Shown here: one piece after another, positions 36,287 to 45,633 of the stretch
Position numbering within the stretch: the first letter of the stretch is position 1
How the letters are laid out: every line of letters starts with the position of its first letter
Assembly: GCA_026709935.1 (NCBI GenBank)
Contig: JAPOSC010000012.1
Span: forward strand, 1 to 64,000
DNA length: 64,000 bases
Source of the DNA: Thiotrichales bacterium
GTDB lineage: Bacteria; Pseudomonadota; Gammaproteobacteria; HK1
Reading direction: 5' to 3'
Translations under genes and position numbers: made by a program
Notes under the pieces: generated by a model
What the model saw: only the letters and a program-made list of their open reading frames with translations
Database searches by the model: none
Told to the model about the DNA's origin: nothing

Positions 36287-37342
36287 ATGGGAATGAACAG
36301 GGAACCGAAGCTCTACCTCGCCCGTGCCCGGGCGGGTGAGGATGAGGAGTTGTCGCTGGAGAACAACCTCGCCATCATCGATCGCCGCGACATTCCTTCT
36401 CTGGAGGGAGCGGCAAACTTCGAGGCGGTTGCGGAGCGCGTGAGCGACGCCCTCCCCGGTGCGAACCCGCGAAGGCGGGGCAACGTCACTGCACAGTTGT
36501 GGACATTCGCTGGCGTGATGCAAAAGGGCGATCTCGTCGTGCTGCCACGCAGACTGACCTCACAGATCGCCATTGGCCGCGTGAATGGACCGTACGAGTT
36601 CAAGGAAGTGAATTCCGAACTGAGGCACACGCGTTCGGTAGAGTGGCAACAAACCGACATCCCACGAACGAGATTCGAGCAGGACCTTCTGTACTCGTTC
36701 GGTGCGTTCATGACGGTATGCAATATCTCCCGGAACGACGCGGCGAAGCGCGTCGCCGCGGTGCTTGAAGGGCAATCTGACCCGGGCCCAGCGATGCCGA
36801 CGAGGATGAAGACGAGGGAGTCGCTGGCGACTGAGGAACAAGCCGAGGCAGTCCCCGATCTGGTGCAGATGGCGCACGACCAGATCGTCGCGCGCATCCA
36901 GTCGCGATTTTCCGGGCACGCCCTGACGGGGCTGGTCGAGGCCCTACTGGAGGCTGAAGGGTGGGTCACGGAAAGTTCTCCTCCGGGTCCCGACGGCGGC
37001 GTGGACATACTCGCCGGTCGGGGCTCGTTGGGGCTTGACGGCCCACGCCTTTGCGTGCAGGTCAAATCGCAGCAAACCCCCGCCGATGTGACCGTGTACC
37101 GCGCTTTGAAGGGGACGATGCAAAACTTCAGCGCAGAACAAGGACTCCTCGTCTGTTGGGGAGGGTTCAACCGGGTAGTGCTTCAGGAATCGAAACAGGG
37201 ACACTTCACGGTGCGTCTGTGGGACGATAGACACCTCGTGGACGCCATCTACCGCAACTACGCTCGCCTGCCGGCCAAGATCAAAACGGAGCTACCGCTG
37301 AAGCAGGTGTGGATGCTCGTCTCAGAGGATGAAGAGGAATAA
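36287..37342 (+). CDS. Mrr-type restriction endonuclease
   Basis: The 351-residue protein has an N-terminal recognition-like domain (VMQKGDLVVLPRR and IAIGRVNGPYEF are typical of this family). A C-terminal Mrr-type PD-(D/E)XK nuclease follows, with D240 in GGVDILA and Q258/K260 in CVQVKSQ. Mrr-like enzymes cut foreign or modified DNA without a partner methylase (type IV). A PLD-type nuclease gene follows 188 bases later, so the two may form one defence unit. A GAGGGGATG sequence precedes the ATG. Confidence 0.82.
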   Translation: MGMNREPKLYLARARAGEDEELSLENNLAIIDRRDIPSLEGAANFEAVAERVSDALPGANPRRRGNVTAQLWTFAGVMQKGDLVVLPRRLTSQIAIGRVNGPYEFKEVNSELRHTRSVEWQQTDIPRTRFEQDLLYSFGAFMTVCNISRNDAAKRVAAVLEGQSDPGPAMPTRMKTRESLATEEQAEAVPDLVQMAHDQIVARIQSRFSGHALTGLVEALLEAEGWVTESSPPGPDGGVDILAGRGSLGLDGPRLCVQVKSQQTPADVTVYRALKGTMQNFSAEQGLLVCWGGFNRVVLQESKQGHFTVRLWDDRHLVDAIYRNYARLPAKIKTELPLKQVWMLVSEDEEE

Positions 37343-37379
37343 ATGAGCCGCTCGCTACCGTGCCGACAAGCACAGCGTT

Positions 37380-37592
37380 GTGCACGTCCATACCGAGTCG
37401 ACCACAGTTGTGATCGAGTTCTTGGTAGGTGGAAGGTTCGCGAGCGTCACCCTCGACTTCGACAGGTCGGTGCTGAGCACCGTGTGCCATGCCGAAGGCA
37501 CTGCGGTGGGGCTCAACATAAGTATCCGCCATGCTGATTACCGAAGAAAAAATATTATCCTATTTCCGGAAGCATCTCTCTTGGGCAACTGA
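37380..37592 (+). CDS. Possible small hypothetical protein
   Basis: A 70-codon frame from a GTG fills the gap after the Mrr gene and overlaps the PLD start by about 60 bases. The product (STTVVIEFLVGGRFASVTLD region) has protein-like alternation of hydrophobic and charged residues, but no family is recognised and no ribosome site is obvious. It may be a decayed gene or chance. Confidence 0.2.
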   Translation: MHVHTESTTVVIEFLVGGRFASVTLDFDRSVLSTVCHAEGTAVGLNISIRHADYRRKNIILFPEASLLGN

Positions 37593-38703
37593 AATCGATC
37601 TTGCCGCCGCTTGGGCTACCAGCCACGAGGGTCTCCGTGCTTTGCAGAGGCAACGGCCGCCGCCGGATATCCGAGCCATCGTGGGGTTGTGGGGAAACTT
37701 AACGGATCCAGTCGCACTCAGAACGCTGGCCAGGATCGGTCAGTTGCGTGGGCCAAACACAGGCCAGCGTTTTCACCCCAAAGTCTTCATATTTCGCGGT
37801 GACAGCAAATCCGTTGCTTGGATCGGAAGCGCGAATTTCACGGCCGGTGGGTTCGAAATGAACAACGAGGCCGTGTTCGAGACATCCGATACCGTGTCGG
37901 TGCAGAATTGGTTCGATGACCTGTGGGAACACACCGCCCCGATCGACGCCGCCGCCATCGATGCCTATGCCGAATCGAGAAAGAACAATCCACCCTCGCC
38001 AGAACTGCGGCCAACGCCGAACACCCGCGACTTGGACCCACCGGGTTTGCTTCGAGAAGTTACGAACTGGCAAAGCTACGTCAAAGCTCTGGAGCAGTGC
38101 GATGGGTGGTGGTGGAGCAACCATCATTCGTGGTCGGTCTTGGGTGAACACAGCAGTTGGCGCGAAACCGCCGAGATCCTGCACGATGTCGTCGCCCAGC
38201 CGGACTGGGACGAACTCGAACAATACGACCGTCTTCGCTTGCTCGGCCTGACGCGAGATGGGCACTGGGGGCTGTTCGGCAGGATGAGGTGGGCGGCCCT
38301 TAAAACAGTTTTCGGCGCCAACCAGCAAGCTATTCAACGTATCGTGCTCGGTGTCGTTGCCGCGGAGGACAGTGCTTTCCCCCAACTCGCGTTCGATGCC
38401 TACAGGGAACTCCAAGACATCGTCGGGATCGGTCCCGGTATTGCGACCCGACTGCTCACTTTTGCTCGCCCCGAACGATTCGTGTCGGTCAACGAAGCGT
38501 CGAAGGACGGCTTGGCTTCTTCCTTCGGTCTTGCGCCCACCACCCTTGGCAATCCCGACAACTACGAGCGCCTTCTCACGGCCATCTACGATCAGGACTG
38601 TTACAGGAATCCGGCTCCGCGAAATGCGCGCGAACGAGCTATCTCGCGGATACGAGCCGCCTTGCTGGATTCGTTCGTCTACGTTACGAAGAACGTTGAC
38701 TGA
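37531..38703 (+). CDS. Phospholipase-D-like nuclease with helix-hairpin-helix region
   Basis: The 390-residue protein has one PLD-type HKD-like motif: H82 and K84 in FHPKVFIF, with S100/N102 in GSANFT and E113. This is the arrangement of BfiI/NgoFVII-type endonucleases that act as dimers. The C-terminal third contains a helix-hairpin-helix element (LQDIVGIGPGIATRLLTFA) followed by RFVSVNEAS, reminiscent of HhH DNA glycosylases. The pairing suggests a metal-independent nuclease with its own DNA-binding or base-recognition part. It lies directly after the Mrr gene. No methylase adjoins it. Confidence 0.75.
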   Translation: MLITEEKILSYFRKHLSWATEIDLAAAWATSHEGLRALQRQRPPPDIRAIVGLWGNLTDPVALRTLARIGQLRGPNTGQRFHPKVFIFRGDSKSVAWIGSANFTAGGFEMNNEAVFETSDTVSVQNWFDDLWEHTAPIDAAAIDAYAESRKNNPPSPELRPTPNTRDLDPPGLLREVTNWQSYVKALEQCDGWWWSNHHSWSVLGEHSSWRETAEILHDVVAQPDWDELEQYDRLRLLGLTRDGHWGLFGRMRWAALKTVFGANQQAIQRIVLGVVAAEDSAFPQLAFDAYRELQDIVGIGPGIATRLLTFARPERFVSVNEASKDGLASSFGLAPTTLGNPDNYERLLTAIYDQDCYRNPAPRNARERAISRIRAALLDSFVYVTKNVD

Positions 38704-38906
38704 CGCGCGTTTTCTAGCGGCTGGTGCCACAGAGACAAACGCGCGAGCCTCCCTGGTGGCCTGATCCCAAGTCGACAGCCACCGCCGCAAGTCGGTACAT
38801 AACGCGCCGACCGTACGGGCGTGTAAGAGCCGATTAGGAGTACGCTCCCACAAGAGCTATGGTTCCCTCGAACCGATATGGGCGAACGCGCGTGAACGCC
38901 TGAACC

Positions 38907-39128
38907 GTCATCAAATCGGATGCAGGCGAATTCGACCTGGAACGACATGGAGCGTAGCGGTGACGGTCCGCCGAGGATCAAACGGGCACGCGGGCGAGAC
39001 TCGGCCATCGTTCCGCGCGCGCCATGGAATCCCAGGCGATGGGTATCGCCACGCCCCGCTTTTCCAGGCCCTTCACGGCAACCAGCGCAGTCCGGGCCAC
39101 CAGCGTCCGCGCCTTCCAGAGCCGCACC
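38907..39128 (+). repeat. Diverged direct repeat, copy A
   Basis: This segment aligns without large gaps to 42714-42936 in the same orientation, about 70% identical by eye. Shared landmarks include GTCATCAAA, GAGCGTAGCGGTG and GCCTTCCAG(A/G)GCCGCACC. The two copies bracket the exported-protein genes. Confidence 0.7.
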
Positions 39129-39493
39129 ACAGGATGGAACCCGTTGGATCTGCGATTCCCGACGGCACGACGCCCGCATCGACGGGCGCCGTCCGCTGCC
39201 CAGCGGCCGGCATGATGCGAGTGGCCGCACGCCGGAGGGTCGGCGCGCCTGGACGGTTGGGTGGCACGGTACGCCTCTCTTGATGGGGGTTCCAACGCCG
39301 TACCTCAGTGTCAATCTCTCTTGAAATCACGCCTCATGGGATTTACGGTGTCGGCATTGGGTGCAGCTTCAGGCGATTGGACAGACAGCAGGTCCAAACC
39401 GGGATGAAGACCGCGATGTGCGCGTTGTGCGCGACGATGCTGGAGGCTCCGAGCCTCGCTGGCGAGTCGGACGTCGCGTGTGCGTCCGGGCGC

Positions 39494-39525
39494 TTGACAG
39501 ACCCGCCTGAAGTGGCCGCTATAAT
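39494..39525 (+). promoter_or_regulatory. Consensus -35/-10 pair before the 7-bp repeat
   Basis: TTGACA (39494-39499) and TATAAT (39520-39525) are both perfect, but the 20-base spacer is longer than optimal. The predicted transcript would start inside the heptamer array immediately downstream. Confidence 0.4.
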
Positions 39526-39530
39526 GATTG

Positions 39531-39580
39531 CCGGATGCCGGATGCCGGATGCCGGATGCCGGATGCCGGATGCCGGATGC
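39531..39580 (+). repeat. 7-bp tandem repeat CCGGATG, seven copies
   Basis: Seven perfect copies of CCGGATG run head to tail, starting 6 bases after a TATAAT box. A unit of 7 would shift any reading frame through it at each gain or loss of a unit. Confidence 0.95.
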
Positions 39581-40178
39581 CTCTCCTGCGTCTTCGGCCT
39601 GGGACGGCTCCCGTCCACTAGCCTCTCCGCCTGATCCCAACGCTTCCCCCGATGGGCGCTGCACCGCCAGCCGCCCGCCTCGGCCCGTGCGCCGGGTCCC
39701 CGCGTTCTCCACCGACGGCCGCGTGCTTTTCGCCGCGCGCGTCCGTCATGCCGCCTGTCGGCCGCGCCGCGGTCTCGCCGCCACGCTTCTCGCCCTGTCG
39801 CTGCCGGCACCTCCCGAACCCGCCGCGGTGCAGACCACCCCGCGACACTGCGCGGGCCTGATGGTCACGCCGGGTGGCCGCCAGGTGCCCCCGGCACTGA
39901 CACACCCCCAACCACGACAACGTCACCGCGGACCCGGCTTGCCCGTGCCCCGGAAGAACATCCCCGCGCACGGAGCCTCCAACGAAATCCACGGGGACCG
40001 GCCTGACCGGCGCCACGCCCCACGACTGCTTCAACACGGAGCGTCGCGCTCTCCGCCGACCCCTGCGAAGGGGTCGCTCGCACACCTTGACGCAAGGCAG
40101 GCACACACGCCCCGAGGTTCCGGTCCGCGCTTCGGAGAGTGATCTTTCTCAGGGCCGAATCGAACAAGGAGAAATCCC

Positions 40179-40310
40179 ATGTTATTCAGAAAGTTACCCC
40201 CCCCCCCCCCCCCCGAAATGCTCGGAGGGTGGGGCGATGAGACGCACAGGGATCGCAGCGGCCGCACTGGTGGCAACGCTGGTCGCCGCGCCGGTGTGGG
40301 CGTCGAATGA
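40179..40310 (+). CDS. Short leader frame containing an 18-C tract
   Basis: An AAGGAG ribosome site about 9 bases before the ATG at 40179 opens a 43-codon frame reading MLFRKL, then six prolines encoded by 18 consecutive C (40197-40214), and ending at 40308-40310. It overlaps the start of the exported-protein gene in a different frame. Losing one C or gaining two would fuse it in frame with that gene. I read it as a leader or alternative start rather than an independent protein. Confidence 0.45.
   Translation: MLFRKLPPPPPPEMLGGWGDETHRDRSGRTGGNAGRRAGVGVE
40197..40214 (+). repeat. Homopolymeric tract of 18 C
   Basis: An uninterrupted run of 18 C lies between a strong start site (40179) and the signal-peptide start (40237). 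Tracts of this length are highly mutable by slipped-strand mispairing and are a hallmark of phase-variable genes. Confidence 0.95.
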
Positions 40311-41019
40311 CGCAACCTGCGATGATGCCGCCAAACTGGCTGGCTGGGCCAGCGGCTATTGGGACAACACCGCTCAGGTTTGCAGGACGCGCTATCCGTA
40401 CAACCCGCCGACACCCTCTCAACAAGAGATCGAAGCGGATGAGCGCCGCAGCCACTCCGACGCCCGCGCCGTGTACTACGGCACGCCGCCCGCCGAGATA
40501 GGAGCGGCCACGGCCAGCATAAAAAGCGGGATGATCTGCATCACCTTTCCTCCCCAAGAGTCCAAGCTGACGGGGCAAGAAAACATAAAACGAGTAGGCG
40601 TTTACGGCGGGGACGGCTACCACGATTCCGGTGTCGTTCTCACCGAAGGCGGCTCCGGCTTTGGAGCCTTTATTCATTTCGGAGACATGTTCATTGACAA
40701 GGGAAGGCAGTGCATTTACGCCAAGGGGCGGCTCATGAACGCCGGGGTTGGGGCGGAGTTTCCCATTTCACTGCGAGTGAGAAACGCCGGGCGCATAGTG
40801 GACGCGACAAACCCGAGCAGGAACTGCGCTCAAAGAAACCACACAACCGATAGGAATCTCAATATCGTCCCAGACCCGGGCTTTGTTAGAGATTCTGCCC
40901 AGGGCCGGTGCGGGCAACGGCATTACACATTCAGGAAAATGGCGCATTGTGCCGGAGCGGGGGATGCTCAATCCCAATCCGCGGGCAGTTGCCGCATCTG
41001 GGTGAGAGTCGAAAACTGA
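40237..41019 (+). CDS. Exported protein of unknown function, candidate phase-variable
   Basis: From the ATG at 40237 the product has 260 residues and a signal peptide cut near residue 23 (VAAPVWASND). The mature part is rich in Cys and Gly, with several paired cysteines late in the sequence (NPSRNCAQRN; GRCGQRHYTF; HCAGAG; SCRIW) that suggest disulfides, so it is periplasmic or secreted. No family is recognised. A GGAGG lies 11 bases before this ATG, and a competing start at 40179 reads through the 18-C tract in another frame. Codon use is less GC-biased than its neighbours, a sign of recent acquisition. Confidence 0.65.
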   Translation: MRRTGIAAAALVATLVAAPVWASNDATCDDAAKLAGWASGYWDNTAQVCRTRYPYNPPTPSQQEIEADERRSHSDARAVYYGTPPAEIGAATASIKSGMICITFPPQESKLTGQENIKRVGVYGGDGYHDSGVVLTEGGSGFGAFIHFGDMFIDKGRQCIYAKGRLMNAGVGAEFPISLRVRNAGRIVDATNPSRNCAQRNHTTDRNLNIVPDPGFVRDSAQGRCGQRHYTFRKMAHCAGAGDAQSQSAGSCRIWVRVEN

Positions 41020-41205
41020 CATGCCCGACTAACGCACGCGGGGCGGTCTTCGGGCCGCGATACTGAAGGGGCCTCTACGGTGGCCCCTTCGCTTGTCAGT
41101 CCCACGGTTCCGCGAGTTCGGCTGCTAGGCGTGATAGAGGCTACTTATCCCGCATAAATTCCGCTTATAGCTCTCTGCGCCTAGTCATGGATATATTTGC
41201 CAAGA

Positions 41206-41853
41206 TTAAAGTCTCATCTTACCGATGATGGTAGCCGTGACCGTGACCGAATGGGATGCGGTATCCCCCCAAGGACAGAACGCGCCGATGGGGATAGTTT
41301 TATCTTGAAGTCGGGTATCCCACCGTCGTGTCACCATGCGCTCGAAGCCTGATTCCTCCCATAGGGAACTCAAGTGAAGACCATTTTGAATTGGAGTGCC
41401 ATCAGATGTCGCCACTAACTTGATAATCAGTTCATACTTAGGATGTCTGTTGGCATCCTGAATGAGGCCTCCCCATGTCGTGTGCCCCCATGCGCGTCCT
41501 GGATGATCTCCCGGCAATTCATCATCTAGCCATCCTTCATCCCGACCGATATTCCTGCCCTCTACTTCTATAAAGGAGGTAGCTGCGTAATGAGCGACAT
41601 TGGGATTGCTGCCAGTCTGTGTCGGAATCGGAGGGTCGTTCGGATTATTCGGATCAACGTAAATGCCATCAGGGATATAACCGGCTTTTCTGCACATCAG
41701 ATTGAATGTGGTACTACTCCTTTCCCATGCCCCCGTTTTAGCTCTTAGCCAAACTTCTGGATCCGCCGCTAAGGCAGAGGATTGCGCTACTACCATCACT
41801 AGCAGCGCAGCCGCGAGTGCGATGCTCGTGCGTTTCAAGGTGATGTGTTTCAT
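41206..41853 (-). CDS. Exported protein of unknown function
   Basis: This 215-residue product has a signal peptide (residues 1-29, ending SSALAAD). The mature part is rich in Asp, Asn, Trp and Pro, with DPNNPNDPPIPTQTG and WGHTTWGGLIQD segments, and has no recognised domain. An AAAGGGG site lies upstream of the ATG. The gene is clearly lower in GC than the flanking DNA. It is convergent with the other exported-protein gene, 186 bases apart, and both lie between the diverged direct repeats, so the two may function together. Confidence 0.65.
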   Translation of the reverse strand: MKHITLKRTSIALAAALLVMVVAQSSALAADPEVWLRAKTGAWERSSTTFNLMCRKAGYIPDGIYVDPNNPNDPPIPTQTGSNPNVAHYAATSFIEVEGRNIGRDEGWLDDELPGDHPGRAWGHTTWGGLIQDANRHPKYELIIKLVATSDGTPIQNGLHLSSLWEESGFERMVTRRWDTRLQDKTIPIGAFCPWGDTASHSVTVTATIIGKMRL

Positions 41854-42271
41854 CGGGCGTATCCCCTTTTGTCAGCGATTCCTTGGTGAATTCGGTCTCG
41901 CAGCCTGATTTTCGGGTGGGGCCGTCTCGGCGCACGTGACGGCGGCGGTGTCTGCCTCGTCGCATGGGCCGCCGGCGGGACAGCACAACGACCGGCCGCG
42001 TCTTCCGCCGCGAAAGTCGCGGTCGTCGGTAGCGCCCGAGGGCGCTGGATGGAGTAAGAGCAGCACCGCCGGATGGCGGATGAGGGGGCGTGAACGGACG
42101 GCGACGGGGTCGGGTGCGCGCATCCCGGCCATGGCGGAGCAACATGCCCGCTCCGTATCGAGCGCACAGAAGCCGCACCATCGCCGGTGACGACGGCAAC
42201 AACGACGTTCGGAAGAGAGACTCCGGTCCGGGTGGCCGGGAGGAACGGGTGGCGGTGGTCTACGCCATTAT

Positions 42272-42313
42272 GAGGCGCGAGGCGCGAGGCGCGAGGCGCG
42301 AGGCGCGAGGCGC
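42272..42313 (+). repeat. 7-bp tandem repeat GAGGCGC, six copies
   Basis: Six perfect heptamers are followed by a partial copy (GAGGT). On the minus strand the array is preceded by TACAAT, echoing the TATAAT-then-heptamer layout at 39520-39580. Confidence 0.95.
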
Positions 42314-42713
42314 GAGGTATTGTACTGGTCGTTCTGTCCATGACTCTCGAAGCAATCATCTTCGCTGCAACTGCGTCAGGAAGTAGACCGCATCTCCGGC
42401 AGCGGCGCAAGCAGCCATCGGAACCGGCCCCACGCGCGGAATCGGGCGCGGCGGGCAGCGACCGCATTGTCTTCGACAGCGACAGCCATCTCACACCGAC
42501 GCTCGAACCAGGGTCGCACCCCGACGGCGGCGACGCGGAGACCGGCCTCGGGGTCGAACTCGGCGGCGGGATGGCCTGGGTCCACCCCACGCTTGGCCTC
42601 TCCCTCGACCTCTCGGCCGCACGACGCCCTGAATGACCGGGACCTCTCCGCCGCCTTCACCTTGGCGGTGAGGTCGGGCGGAGGATAGCCGCCGCCAACA
42701 AGGCGCACCGCCC

Positions 42714-42936
42714 GTCATCAAACCGCATGCTGCCCACTTCGACCAGAAGCGCCGCCGAGCGTAGCGGTGGCACCCGGCCGAACGTCGAATATCGGTGCCG
42801 GCACGATGCCTCCCTCCCCCGCACGCACGCCATCGCACACTGGGCGATAGGTCACGCCGCGCCCCGGTTTTCCACCCCAGTCACGGCAGCGCGGTCAGCT
42901 TGGGCAGCCACCATCCACGCCTTCCAGGGCCGCACC
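42714..42936 (+). repeat. Diverged direct repeat, copy B
   Basis: This is the partner of 38907-39128, in the same orientation, about 70% identical by eye and 3.8 kb away. It abuts the 3' end of the restriction endonuclease gene. Confidence 0.7.
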
Positions 42937-42953
42937 GTCGACCACAGATAGCA

Positions 42954-43688
42954 TTAGCGCACACACTCGGCCGCAGTGTGGCCGGCGAGCTCGGAGATAA
43001 AAGTTCGTAGACCTGTCAATTCGCTTAGTTCCGAATAGTCTCCGATTATGGATGCAGAGCGGGGCGACGTCAAGACGGCGGCTGCCGAGTACAACTGCTC
43101 CTGCATCAGTTTCCGGCAGAGAATGTTGTATCGGGCCGCATAAGAGGTATCCGCGAACTCCTTGAAAACTGGGAAATGCGGACACTCATTCTTGATGGGT
43201 TCGCGTGAGCCCTCTGCATCTTCCACCAGGATCAGCCACCCGACAAAGGGGCGGGGTTGTTCACCAAAGGCACCCTCGCGATATGCTGTCCAGAGGTCAT
43301 GAGCGGTTCCGATGGCTTCCTCCGCGCGGTTGTTGAAATTGTTGCCGAAGGAGGGACCGACCTGGCTCTTGAATTCGAGTGCGGCGATCAATCGACCGTG
43401 ATTGATGACGAGGACATCCCACAACTTCGTGGGTCGGAAATAGCCTGGCAGTGTCAGGACCCGGCGCTTCAGGTGAATGCTCGCGTCAGCGAGGCCATTG
43501 GCGCGGACGACGTGAGTCACGAGCGTAATGAAGCCGTCCATGTTTTTTCCGGCGGTTACGCCTGCGCGTTCTCCCTGATCGGCCCTTCCCGATTCGATCT
43601 GTTTTTGCCGCGCCTGCTCGCGGCTGGCCCAAAACAGTCGCACGGCGGCGCGAGCTTTCTCTTCGTAGTTGACGAGGTCGACCGGCAC
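42954..43688 (-). CDS. PaeR7I/XhoI-family type II restriction endonuclease
   Basis: The 244-residue protein closely matches the XhoI/PaeR7I family. Recognisable blocks include [53 protein letters not shown] and QPRPFVGWL. The catalytic PD-(D/E)XK residues are D91 and E105/K107 (ALEFKSQ). Characterised members cut CTCGAG; the same target is likely here but is an inference from family. It is encoded 14 bases after its methyltransferase on the same strand, with the methylase first, which favours protection before cutting. Confidence 0.9.
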
Positions 43689-43702
43689 GGAACACGCTCC
43701 TT

Positions 43703-45445
43703 TCAGTTGTCGGCACCATTGCCGCCGAGCGCGGCGCGTTCGTCGGCATTGAGATCGTAGAGCGCGAAGGCGGCCTGATTGCAGGCTTCAACGTCACCGG
43801 CCTCGGCAGCGGAGACCAGTGTATGCATTTTGGAGCGCGAAACGGTGGAACAGTGCGGTAGCCGTATGCGGCGAAGATACTGAGCCTGGAAGCGCAAGTA
43901 TCCGCCGCGCATCCTGGTCGAATAGGCGCCAATGAACAAGTGGGCGATACCGGAGAGCAAAACGGCCTGAAGGGCTCGGAGATGCCAATGGTCGGACGTG
44001 ATGTAGTAGAGGTTATGATGAGGGTAGAGCGTGCCGCCTTCGTAAACGATTTGCGCCTCGCCCTTGATGTCGGGAATGAGAAGCTTGGGCGTTCGCGCCA
44101 AGGCAGGATAGATTCGGTCGATGGTGCGATACCAGTTGGCGGGTGCCTTCTTCGCGATGTGACGTATGGCTATCTGATCCTTCCGATCTTCCAGGTGGCG
44201 TTTCAGGCGAGGATACCGGTCGAGCGCGACCAGTCCACCTTCGTCGGCAAACGGGTTGACAATCCCGAGACCACGCCACTCGACCTCACCTGACATGATG
44301 TCTCGCGTCGTGGCCAAGGGGAGCTTGCGGTCGTCTTCGACGTCGAGATCTTGAAAAGGACCGATGAATGCCTTGTCGGCACCAGTTGCGACGCCGATAC
44401 CGATTTTGCATCCCGCCTCTTCGAGCATGGGGAAGTCCCTTTCCAAGCGCCTGAGCAGCGCGAGGCGTTCGGGTTTATCCAGAATCCAGGGCTGGGAGCC
44501 GTCGGCGACCTCGGCAATGTCTCTGACGGGAGTGGCCGGCGCAGGCGGCGAGGTGTCGGTCAGCCAACCGGCCAACCTGGTCAGGGACGATGCACAGATG
44601 TGTGGCCGATGCGCGATGCGCGTCGCGCCAGGCCCTTGCCTGGCAATGATGAAGATCGCTGGATAGGCGATTACATCCGAATGAAATGCGGGGGTGTCGT
44701 ACATATCGACATAAATCTGAAGATGGAATTGCTCCGAGACGAGCCGGCGCAACGGCCCTCCATAGCGGTTTTTCATCCAGCGATCGGCACAGATGAAGCC
44801 GAGCCTCCCGTCATCGCGCAGTTGATGGAGTGATCGCTCGATGAAGGGGATGTAGACGTCAGCGCGATCGAAGATCGTGCTGTATCGGCGCCGGTACTCG
44901 GCGACCAGCGCGTTGGGGATCTGCTCGTGGCGTACGTAGGGTGGGTTGCCCACGACGAACTGGACAGGGAGCGGTAGATCAGCGAGCAGGAAGTCATCGT
45001 GAATCAGCCAGGCATCGATGAGTGACGCAGCATCGGTCCGGAGAATTCCTGCGTCCCTGAGCAGCCGGATCAGTTTGGCGCGTGTCGACTCGAATGAAGC
45101 CTGGTGCAGTTCGACGGCCCGGATGGCGTTGGCGAGTGCTGTCACCGGGACGGGCTCCGCGAGATTGCGCCAAGCCGCGAGAAGGCGTTCGACGGCGGCC
45201 AGCAAAAAGTCACCGTCGCCGAAAGACGGCTCAAGGAGGGGGAGTGCGTGAAGCGGCCGGTCCGGCGTGTAGCCGACAAGGTCGAGAATGAAATCAACCA
45301 CTTCGCGGCGCGTGAAGATCGCACCGCGTTCTTCCGGCCCGGCCCGGGACAACTGCGCAAGCGCGGCCTCGACGGGGCAAAGGCCAGGCAGGGATACCTG
45401 CTGGGCGAGAGAGCGTGGAGCAGATGCGGTTTCGGGCACGATCAC
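43703..45445 (-). CDS. N6-adenine DNA methyltransferase of the PaeR7I/XhoI system
   Basis: The 580-residue methyltransferase has AdoMet motif I as [13 protein letters not shown] (70-82) and catalytic motif IV NPPY at 167-170, the gamma-class N6-adenine type. A C-terminal TaqI-like target-recognition part follows. A GTG at 45445 overlapping the upstream ribbon-helix-helix stop by 4 bases is the natural start; longer in-frame sequence runs through that gene. With the downstream endonuclease it forms a complete type II system that would methylate adenine in CTCGAG if specificity follows the family. Confidence 0.88.
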
Positions 45446-45633
45446 GCGTCGGCGGCGACCGTCTTGTCCGGTCGGCCGAGATCCAGTCGGGATGAACCTT
45501 CGCGCTCGCGGTGTTCCAGAAAGTCGCGCATCAGGCGGCGGATGATCCATGACACCGTGACGTCACTCTCCTTCGCGATGCATGCCATTGCCGCGTAGTG
45601 ATCCGGCTCAACGGTAATCGTGATGCGCTGCAT
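45442..45633 (-). CDS. Ribbon-helix-helix protein, possible R-M controller
   Basis: The 63-residue product begins [20 protein letters not shown] and continues with [14 protein letters not shown], the beta-strand plus two-helix pattern of CopG/MetJ-type regulators. Its stop overlaps the methylase GTG (GTGA). A perfect inverted repeat lies 28 bases upstream of its ATG, so it may repress its own operon and delay the endonuclease, like a C protein. No toxin partner adjoins it. Confidence 0.7.

What the first reader, a model, noticed from the sequence alone, without database searches (positions are those of the whole stretch)
40179..40260. 18-C tract between a strong start site and a signal-peptide ORF: candidate phase-variable exported protein
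AAGGAG plus ATG at 40179 leads through 18 consecutive C into a frame one base off the exported-protein gene that starts at 40237. A change of -1 or +2 C would fuse the two frames and give the protein an N-terminal extension that would disturb its signal peptide; at 18 C, ribosomes from the strong upstream site overrun the real start out of frame. Long poly-C or poly-G tracts at gene starts are a known mechanism of ON/OFF switching of surface proteins. The downstream protein is exported, Cys-rich and of unknown family.
Basis: partly seen in the sequence, partly recalled or inferred. Interest (0 to 1): 0.75.

Follow-up and report, generated by a model that had tools for sequence, protein, structure and literature searches.

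The report
Slippery C-run switches exported proteins

Summary
It is not a one-off. The same genome has about 11 loci built alike: Shine-Dalgarno, ATG, short leader, C-run (mostly 11-18), signal peptide, divergent mature protein. The leader is in frame in five of nine scorable loci and out of frame in four, including the window. Several loci, and the window protein's 71-75%-identical homolog in another MAG (C12 at the same place), lack an ATG after the run, so the upstream ATG is the native start and the run lies in the signal peptide's n-region. Two other gammaproteobacterial MAGs and a Rhodobacteraceae MAG carry the same repertoire; congeners lack it. Near-identical copies differ by one C (C8/C9/C10). 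One subfamily is FN3-like with conserved ends and a hypervariable middle. Best explanation: slipped-strand phase variation of a horizontally shared secreted-protein repertoire; assembled C18 is OFF for the long form, C17 or C20 ON. An internal Shine-Dalgarno and ATG may still allow a short form. Reads, expression and export are untested. New variant of a known kind.

The parts
40166..40171 (+). Shine-Dalgarno AAGGAG of the leader start
   Evidence: same element in the sister loci
40179..40196 (+). leader codons MLFRKL, start codon ATG 40179; sister leaders follow M-x-F-x-K-(S/L)
40197..40214 (+). 18-C homopolymer, proposed slipped-strand switch
40224..40229 (+). internal Shine-Dalgarno GGAGGG, present in only a subset of sister loci
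40237..41019 (+). exported protein ORF (260 aa from the internal ATG; 279 aa from ATG 40179 at C17); no Pfam family; 71-75% identical homolog in G055
40237..40302 (+). signal-peptide core MRRTGIAAAALVATLVAAPVWA (by inspection; conserved LAAALVAxxVAAPVxA in sisters)
40308..40310 (+). stop codon of the leader frame at C18 (43-aa overrun product)
39919..40165 (+). upstream region alignable with the upstream regions of sister loci C25, C38b and C10 but not the others
41206..41853 (-). convergent neighbour: signal-peptide protein without a C-run, homolog of a C13-controlled protein in G055 (L143/L233)

Best explanation
A phase-variable contingency gene. Translation starts at ATG 40179 and reads through the C-run into a long, charged n-region that leads into the signal peptide of a secreted (periplasmic or surface) protein. 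Slipped-strand mispairing during replication changes the number of C. C17 or C20 puts leader and signal peptide in one frame (ON). C18, the assembled state, and C16/C19 do not (OFF for the long form). In this sub-group an internal Shine-Dalgarno and ATG 40237 may give some short form: ribosomes arriving in the C16/C19 frame stop exactly at that ATG (possible coupling), while those in the C18 frame overrun it (possible occlusion). The locus is one of a repertoire of independently switching secreted proteins, part of which is shared by horizontal transfer with other bacteria. Shown: anatomy, the multi-locus family, mixed phases, length differences between near-identical copies, homologs with the run at the same place. 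Inferred: slippage rate, expression, export, surface exposure, coupling/occlusion, selective advantage.
For: About eleven loci of the same anatomy in the genome, reversed-pattern control 0. In-frame at C24 (C15), C25 (C14), C29 (C12), C38a (C16), C45 (C15); out of frame at C31 (C15), C38b (C11), C82/window (C18), C27 start (C17). C38a, C38b and C45 have no ATG between run and signal peptide. Homolog of the window protein in G055 (71% identity over 217 codons; 75% by tblastn) has a C12 run at the same place, is one C away from in-frame and has no internal ATG. Rhodobacteraceae MAG G056: 17 strict-pattern loci and 32 hits to the A1 profile; near-identical MKRLLN leaders with C8, C9 and C10 in 91-100% identical flanks. 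ORFs downstream of out-of-frame runs are intact and evolve with dN/dS about 0.24-0.57, so they are not dead. Tract lengths match known phase-variable tracts (pilC G9-20, lgtG C10-16 in Neisseria, PMC5953494).
Against: No read-level or within-species length polymorphism could be examined. At most one genome per species is held. The internal Shine-Dalgarno and ATG at 40237 could make the gene independent of the run. In G055-G057, 31 of 35 scored loci are out of frame and the phase one C too long is over-represented, more than a simple 1/3 expectation, though many copies are recent duplicates. Exact lengths near contig ends (46 G at C27, 51 C in L253) look like assembly artefacts.
Confidence: 0.85

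Rival explanations
1. One reading: ATG 40237 is the main start and the upstream ORF only modulates it by occlusion or coupling, so the switch is a dimmer between levels of one short protein rather than ON/OFF of a long one.
For: Good internal Shine-Dalgarno GGAGGG 8 nt from ATG 40237; a similar internal start in C25, C27, C31, C24, C10, C29 and in L143; leader stop overlaps the ATG in one phase.
Against: Absent in C38a, C38b, C45, in nearly all G056 loci and in the window protein's own homolog L237. The ATGA overlap follows automatically from ATG followed by A, so it is not evidence by itself.
Confidence: 0.3
2. The run is fixed and read by ribosomal +1 slippage on CCC-C or by RNA-polymerase slippage, giving a constant low level rather than heritable switching.
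For: Over-representation of the one-C-too-long phase in G055-G057 and many copies at C9; +1 slippage at CCC-C by proline tRNAs is established knowledge (from memory).
Against: Tract lengths in the window's genome range from 11 to 18 with all three phases present, not a fixed length. Near-identical copies differ by one C.
Confidence: 0.08
3. Decayed gene: the C-run is a frameshift in a pseudogene.
For: The window copy is out of frame; sister copies C10 (interrupted run, late frame break) and C27 start look decayed.
Against: 260-aa ORF intact, homolog at dN/dS about 0.45; five sister loci are in frame.
Confidence: 0.04
4. Assembly or sequencing artefact.
For: Family loci often sit at contig ends, and some runs next to contig ends or gaps are clearly artificial (C63 gap, C27 end).
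Against: The window locus lies inside a 74.6-kb contig; the same position carries a run in independent MAGs from different assemblies and in many loci; congeners assembled as single contigs also carry long C-runs.
Confidence: 0.03

Closest known systems
Neisseria pilC (poly-G 9-20) and opa (CTTCT repeats)
   Same: Repeat in the coding region of an exported or surface protein; frame switching ON/OFF; opa is a multi-copy family that also recombines (PMC5953494). That these repeats lie in the signal-peptide coding region is from memory.
   Different: No sequence relation; here the run is C inside a short separate-looking leader, the proteins are Pfam-less and partly FN3-like, and the carriers are uncultured bacteria from several lineages.
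Helicobacter pylori oipA (CT repeats in the 5' region)
   Same: 5'-end repeat controlling an outer-membrane protein by frameshift (PMC10564699).
   Different: Dinucleotide repeat, single gene, unrelated protein.
Listeria inlA 5' poly-A and 5' homopolymeric tracts in general
   Same: Homopolymer near the 5' end gives reversible inactivation; proposed as a general prokaryotic mechanism (PMC2831843).
   Different: Short A/T tracts there; long C tracts in a shared multi-gene repertoire here.
Fibronectin type III domains (closest solved fold of the paralogous A3 subfamily: RsgI4 sensor domain 7cg8, and FN3 domains)
   Same: Predicted beta-sandwich, Foldseek E about 1e-4 to 1e-3.
   Different: No Pfam FN3 hit; the window protein itself is not in this subfamily and its model failed.

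Membership tests
Slipped-strand (SSR) translational phase-variable locus | Long uninterrupted repeat whose unit is not a multiple of 3, near the 5' end of a coding region | tested here: met
   C18 six codons after the ATG
Slipped-strand (SSR) translational phase-variable locus | Repeat retained at the same place in homologs while its length differs | tested here: met
   C18 in the window versus C12 in G055 homolog L237; C8/C9/C10 between near-identical G056 copies
Slipped-strand (SSR) translational phase-variable locus | Loci occur in both in-frame and out-of-frame states with intact ORFs | tested here: met
Slipped-strand (SSR) translational phase-variable locus | Length heterogeneity within a clonal population | not testable with these tools
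   no reads available
Slipped-strand (SSR) translational phase-variable locus | Protein expression follows tract length | not testable with these tools
   needs reporter, ribosome profiling or proteomics
Opa / PilC / OipA protein families | Sequence homology of the mature protein | tested here: not met
   no Pfam family for the window protein or its sisters
FN3-domain secreted proteins | FN3 fold | tested here: inconclusive
   met by model for sister subfamily A3; window protein model has pLDDT 35

The most novel reading that the evidence does not exclude
A horizontally traded repertoire of tens of independently C-run-switched secreted proteins, part of it with conserved ends and a hypervariable FN3-like middle, used by unrelated (alpha- and gammaproteobacterial) members of host-associated communities as an antigenic-variation-like system outside classical pathogens.
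Probability: 0.5. Interest if true: 0.78.

Novelty: new variant of a known kind. Interest (0 to 1): 0.64.

Why it matters
Phase variation by homopolymer slippage is best documented in cultured pathogens (Neisseria, Helicobacter, Campylobacter, Listeria). Here an uncultured genome carries about eleven secreted-protein genes under one leader-run-signal-peptide module. The same module and homologous proteins recur in a Rhodobacteraceae MAG and two other gammaproteobacterial MAGs, but not in the genome's own congeners. If real, these bacteria diversify their secreted or surface proteins cell by cell and share the repertoire, which can be tested directly in existing metagenome reads by counting tract lengths locus by locus.

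Tried and rejected
Homologs of the window protein in 54 relatives, viral contigs, plasmids: none. Homologs of sister protein C29 in phages: none. A3 profile in 369 genomes of the class: only the own genome. Structure of the window protein: failed, pLDDT 35, 5 sequences. Pfam on the window protein and sisters: nothing. A conserved RNA hairpin about 60 nt upstream (CACTCCC...GGGAGTG in C10 and C25) was considered and dropped: it is not preserved in the window copy (by eye). Assembly artefact considered and rejected for this locus, accepted for some runs at contig ends. The leader-stop/ATG overlap (ATGA) was considered as evidence for coupling and discounted, since it follows from ATG followed by A. 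The idea that the CAR MAGs come from a sponge could not be confirmed in the literature searched and is not relied on. Literature searches found no description of this family.

Full report
Observation. The sequence reads as described: AAGGAG 40166-40171, ATG 40179, MLFRKL, 18 C at 40197-40214, then GAAATGCTCGGAGGGTGGGGCGATG with a second Shine-Dalgarno and ATG 40237 opening a 260-aa ORF with a signal peptide. No other C/G run in the window exceeds 7; extrapolating the run-length distribution expects 4e-8 runs of 18 here. Simulated tract lengths give three outcomes: C17/C20 fuse leader and gene (279/280 aa), C18 overruns the second start to about 40310, C16/C19 stop at the TGA overlapping ATG 40237.

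A family in the same genome. The genome holding the window (G000, 3.78 Mb, 88 contigs) has 27 tracts of nine or more C. Reading all of them showed that ten belong to one anatomy: AAGGAG, 6-9 nt, ATG, a short leader often of the form M-x-F-x-K-S/L, C-run, 20-30 nt, signal peptide with LAAALVAxxVAAPVxA, and then different mature proteins. An eleventh (contig C10) has an interrupted run CCCCCCTCCCC. The strict pattern finds 9 loci in this genome and none with the pattern reversed; among 15 relatives there is a single hit, in one family-level genome, and none in four congeners. Tract lengths are 11, 12, 14, 15, 15, 15, 16, 17 and 18. The leader is in frame with the signal peptide in C24, C25, C29, C38a and C45, and out of frame in C31, C38b, C82 (window) and C27 start (at C27 start the contig begins 71 nt before the run and no Shine-Dalgarno is visible).

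Which ATG is the start. In C38a (MFSKSTPPPPPKFPRWPLTLTAALVAMLAGPVWAQ...), C45 and C38b no ATG lies between the run and the signal peptide, so translation must come through the run. The same holds for nearly all loci of other genomes and for the closest homolog of the window protein, L237 in G055. The window copy belongs to a sub-group (C82, C25, C27 start, C31, C24, C10, C29 and L143) that also has an internal start, mostly with a Shine-Dalgarno. I therefore take ATG 40179 as the native start and treat the internal one as an unresolved second start.

Relatives elsewhere. A pattern scan of GTDB genomes returned, among many unrelated hits, a Gammaproteobacteria MAG (JAPOTY010000042.1, CAR4_bin_12, = G055) with leader ATGTCATTCAGCAAGTCA[C13] and a homolog of the window's neighbour gene 41206-41853, and a Rhodobacteraceae MAG (CAR1_bin_2, = G056) with homologs of sisters C24, C29, C31 and C45. 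Strict-pattern counts were 3 in G055, 17 in G056, 2 in G057 (CAR3_bin_20) and 18 in G058 (an alphaproteobacterium with different proteins), controls 0, 0, 0 and 1. The A1 profile gave 32 matches in G056, 2 in G055, 6 in G057 and 0 in congeners G001-G004. The 20-sequence A3 profile matched only the own genome among 369 genomes of the class. The window protein has homologs in G055 and G057, none in 54 relatives. This patchy distribution, with dS of only about 0.45 between window and G055 copies, points to horizontal transfer (inference).

Evidence for slippage and for function. In G056, eight copies with leader MKRLLN have flanks 91-100% identical but C8, C9 or C10, giving in-frame, out and out respectively. 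The window gene and its G055 homolog differ C18 versus C12. ORFs beyond out-of-frame runs are intact, with dN/dS 0.24-0.57: constrained but fast. The G056 copies keep conserved 5' and 3' ends and a hypervariable centre (pairwise identity 0.42-0.7); that centre is the domain AlphaFold2 models well (pLDDT 80-90) and Foldseek matches to FN3-like domains. The window protein itself could not be modelled and has no known family.

Genus context. Long C-runs are frequent in the genus (8-18 runs of 11 or more in three congeners, 7 in the fourth) but sit in other genes: a DNA methyltransferase in G001 and short RiPP-like precursor peptides in the single-contig genomes G002 and G004. In the own genome other runs lie in a GT10 fucosyltransferase-like gene and a YcaO gene. 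DNA methyltransferases and fucosyltransferases are classic phase-variable genes (from memory), which supports reading C-runs here as contingency switches.

Unexplained. In G055-G057 the phase with one C too many is commoner than expected (partly duplicates). It may reflect selection for OFF in the sampled habitat, descent, or tolerance of +1 slippage at CCC-C.

Limits. No reads, no second strain, no expression data, no name for the genome; state calls rest on assembled consensus lengths, which are unreliable at contig ends. Verdict: phase-variable exported protein locus, member of a new multi-lineage repertoire using a known mechanism.

Noticed in passing
G000 C4, C45, C55 (L009, L021, L026): Second family: poly-G runs of 14, 11 and 15 lie 66-70 nt upstream of small secreted Calx-beta-like proteins, after a conserved hairpin TATCGCCCCGATAGGAAAA; looks like promoter-type phase variation.
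   Followed up: partly
G002 and G004 (L287, L292, L293, L298, L301): Congeners carry several short RiPP-like precursor peptides (KPWxKPTVRVIGET...) with C19-C26 runs shortly after or before the start region, in different phases: possibly phase-variable RiPP precursors.
   Followed up: partly
L032 and L023 (G000 C70, C47): C14 inside a YcaO cyclodehydratase gene and C13 at codon 3 of a GT10 fucosyltransferase-like gene, both in frame.
   Followed up: partly
L273 (G001): N6/N4 DNA methyltransferase with a C12 run after a ten-codon leader, out of frame: candidate phasevarion.
   Followed up: no
L080-L191, Candidatus Gastranaerophilales MAGs: Many prepilin-like genes (FTLAEVLITLG) follow AAGGAG-ATG-leader-C10; 25 of 28 prepilins with a run are C10 in the out-of-frame state. 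The scan required C10 or more, so shorter runs were invisible; fixed-length frameshifting or ascertainment.
   Followed up: partly
G058 (CALXUB, E02__bin238): A 1.3-Mb alphaproteobacterial MAG has 57 C-runs of 11 or more; 18 loci of 8 or more C are in ATGTTCACTTTAACC-type leaders or similar before signal peptides of Cys-rich proteins.
   Followed up: no
window 39529-39581 and 42272-42317: Two perfect heptanucleotide tandem repeats (TGCCGGA x7.6, GAGGCGC x6.6) flank the locus; their unit also shifts frame.
   Followed up: no
window 36287-45550: Restriction genes around the locus: Mrr-like, PLD/NgoFVII-like, XhoI endonuclease and an Eco57I-type methylase.
   Followed up: no
G000 contig ends C25, C27 (both ends), C31, C82: Five contig ends coincide with members of the family, as expected if runs and shared leaders break the assembly.
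   Followed up: no
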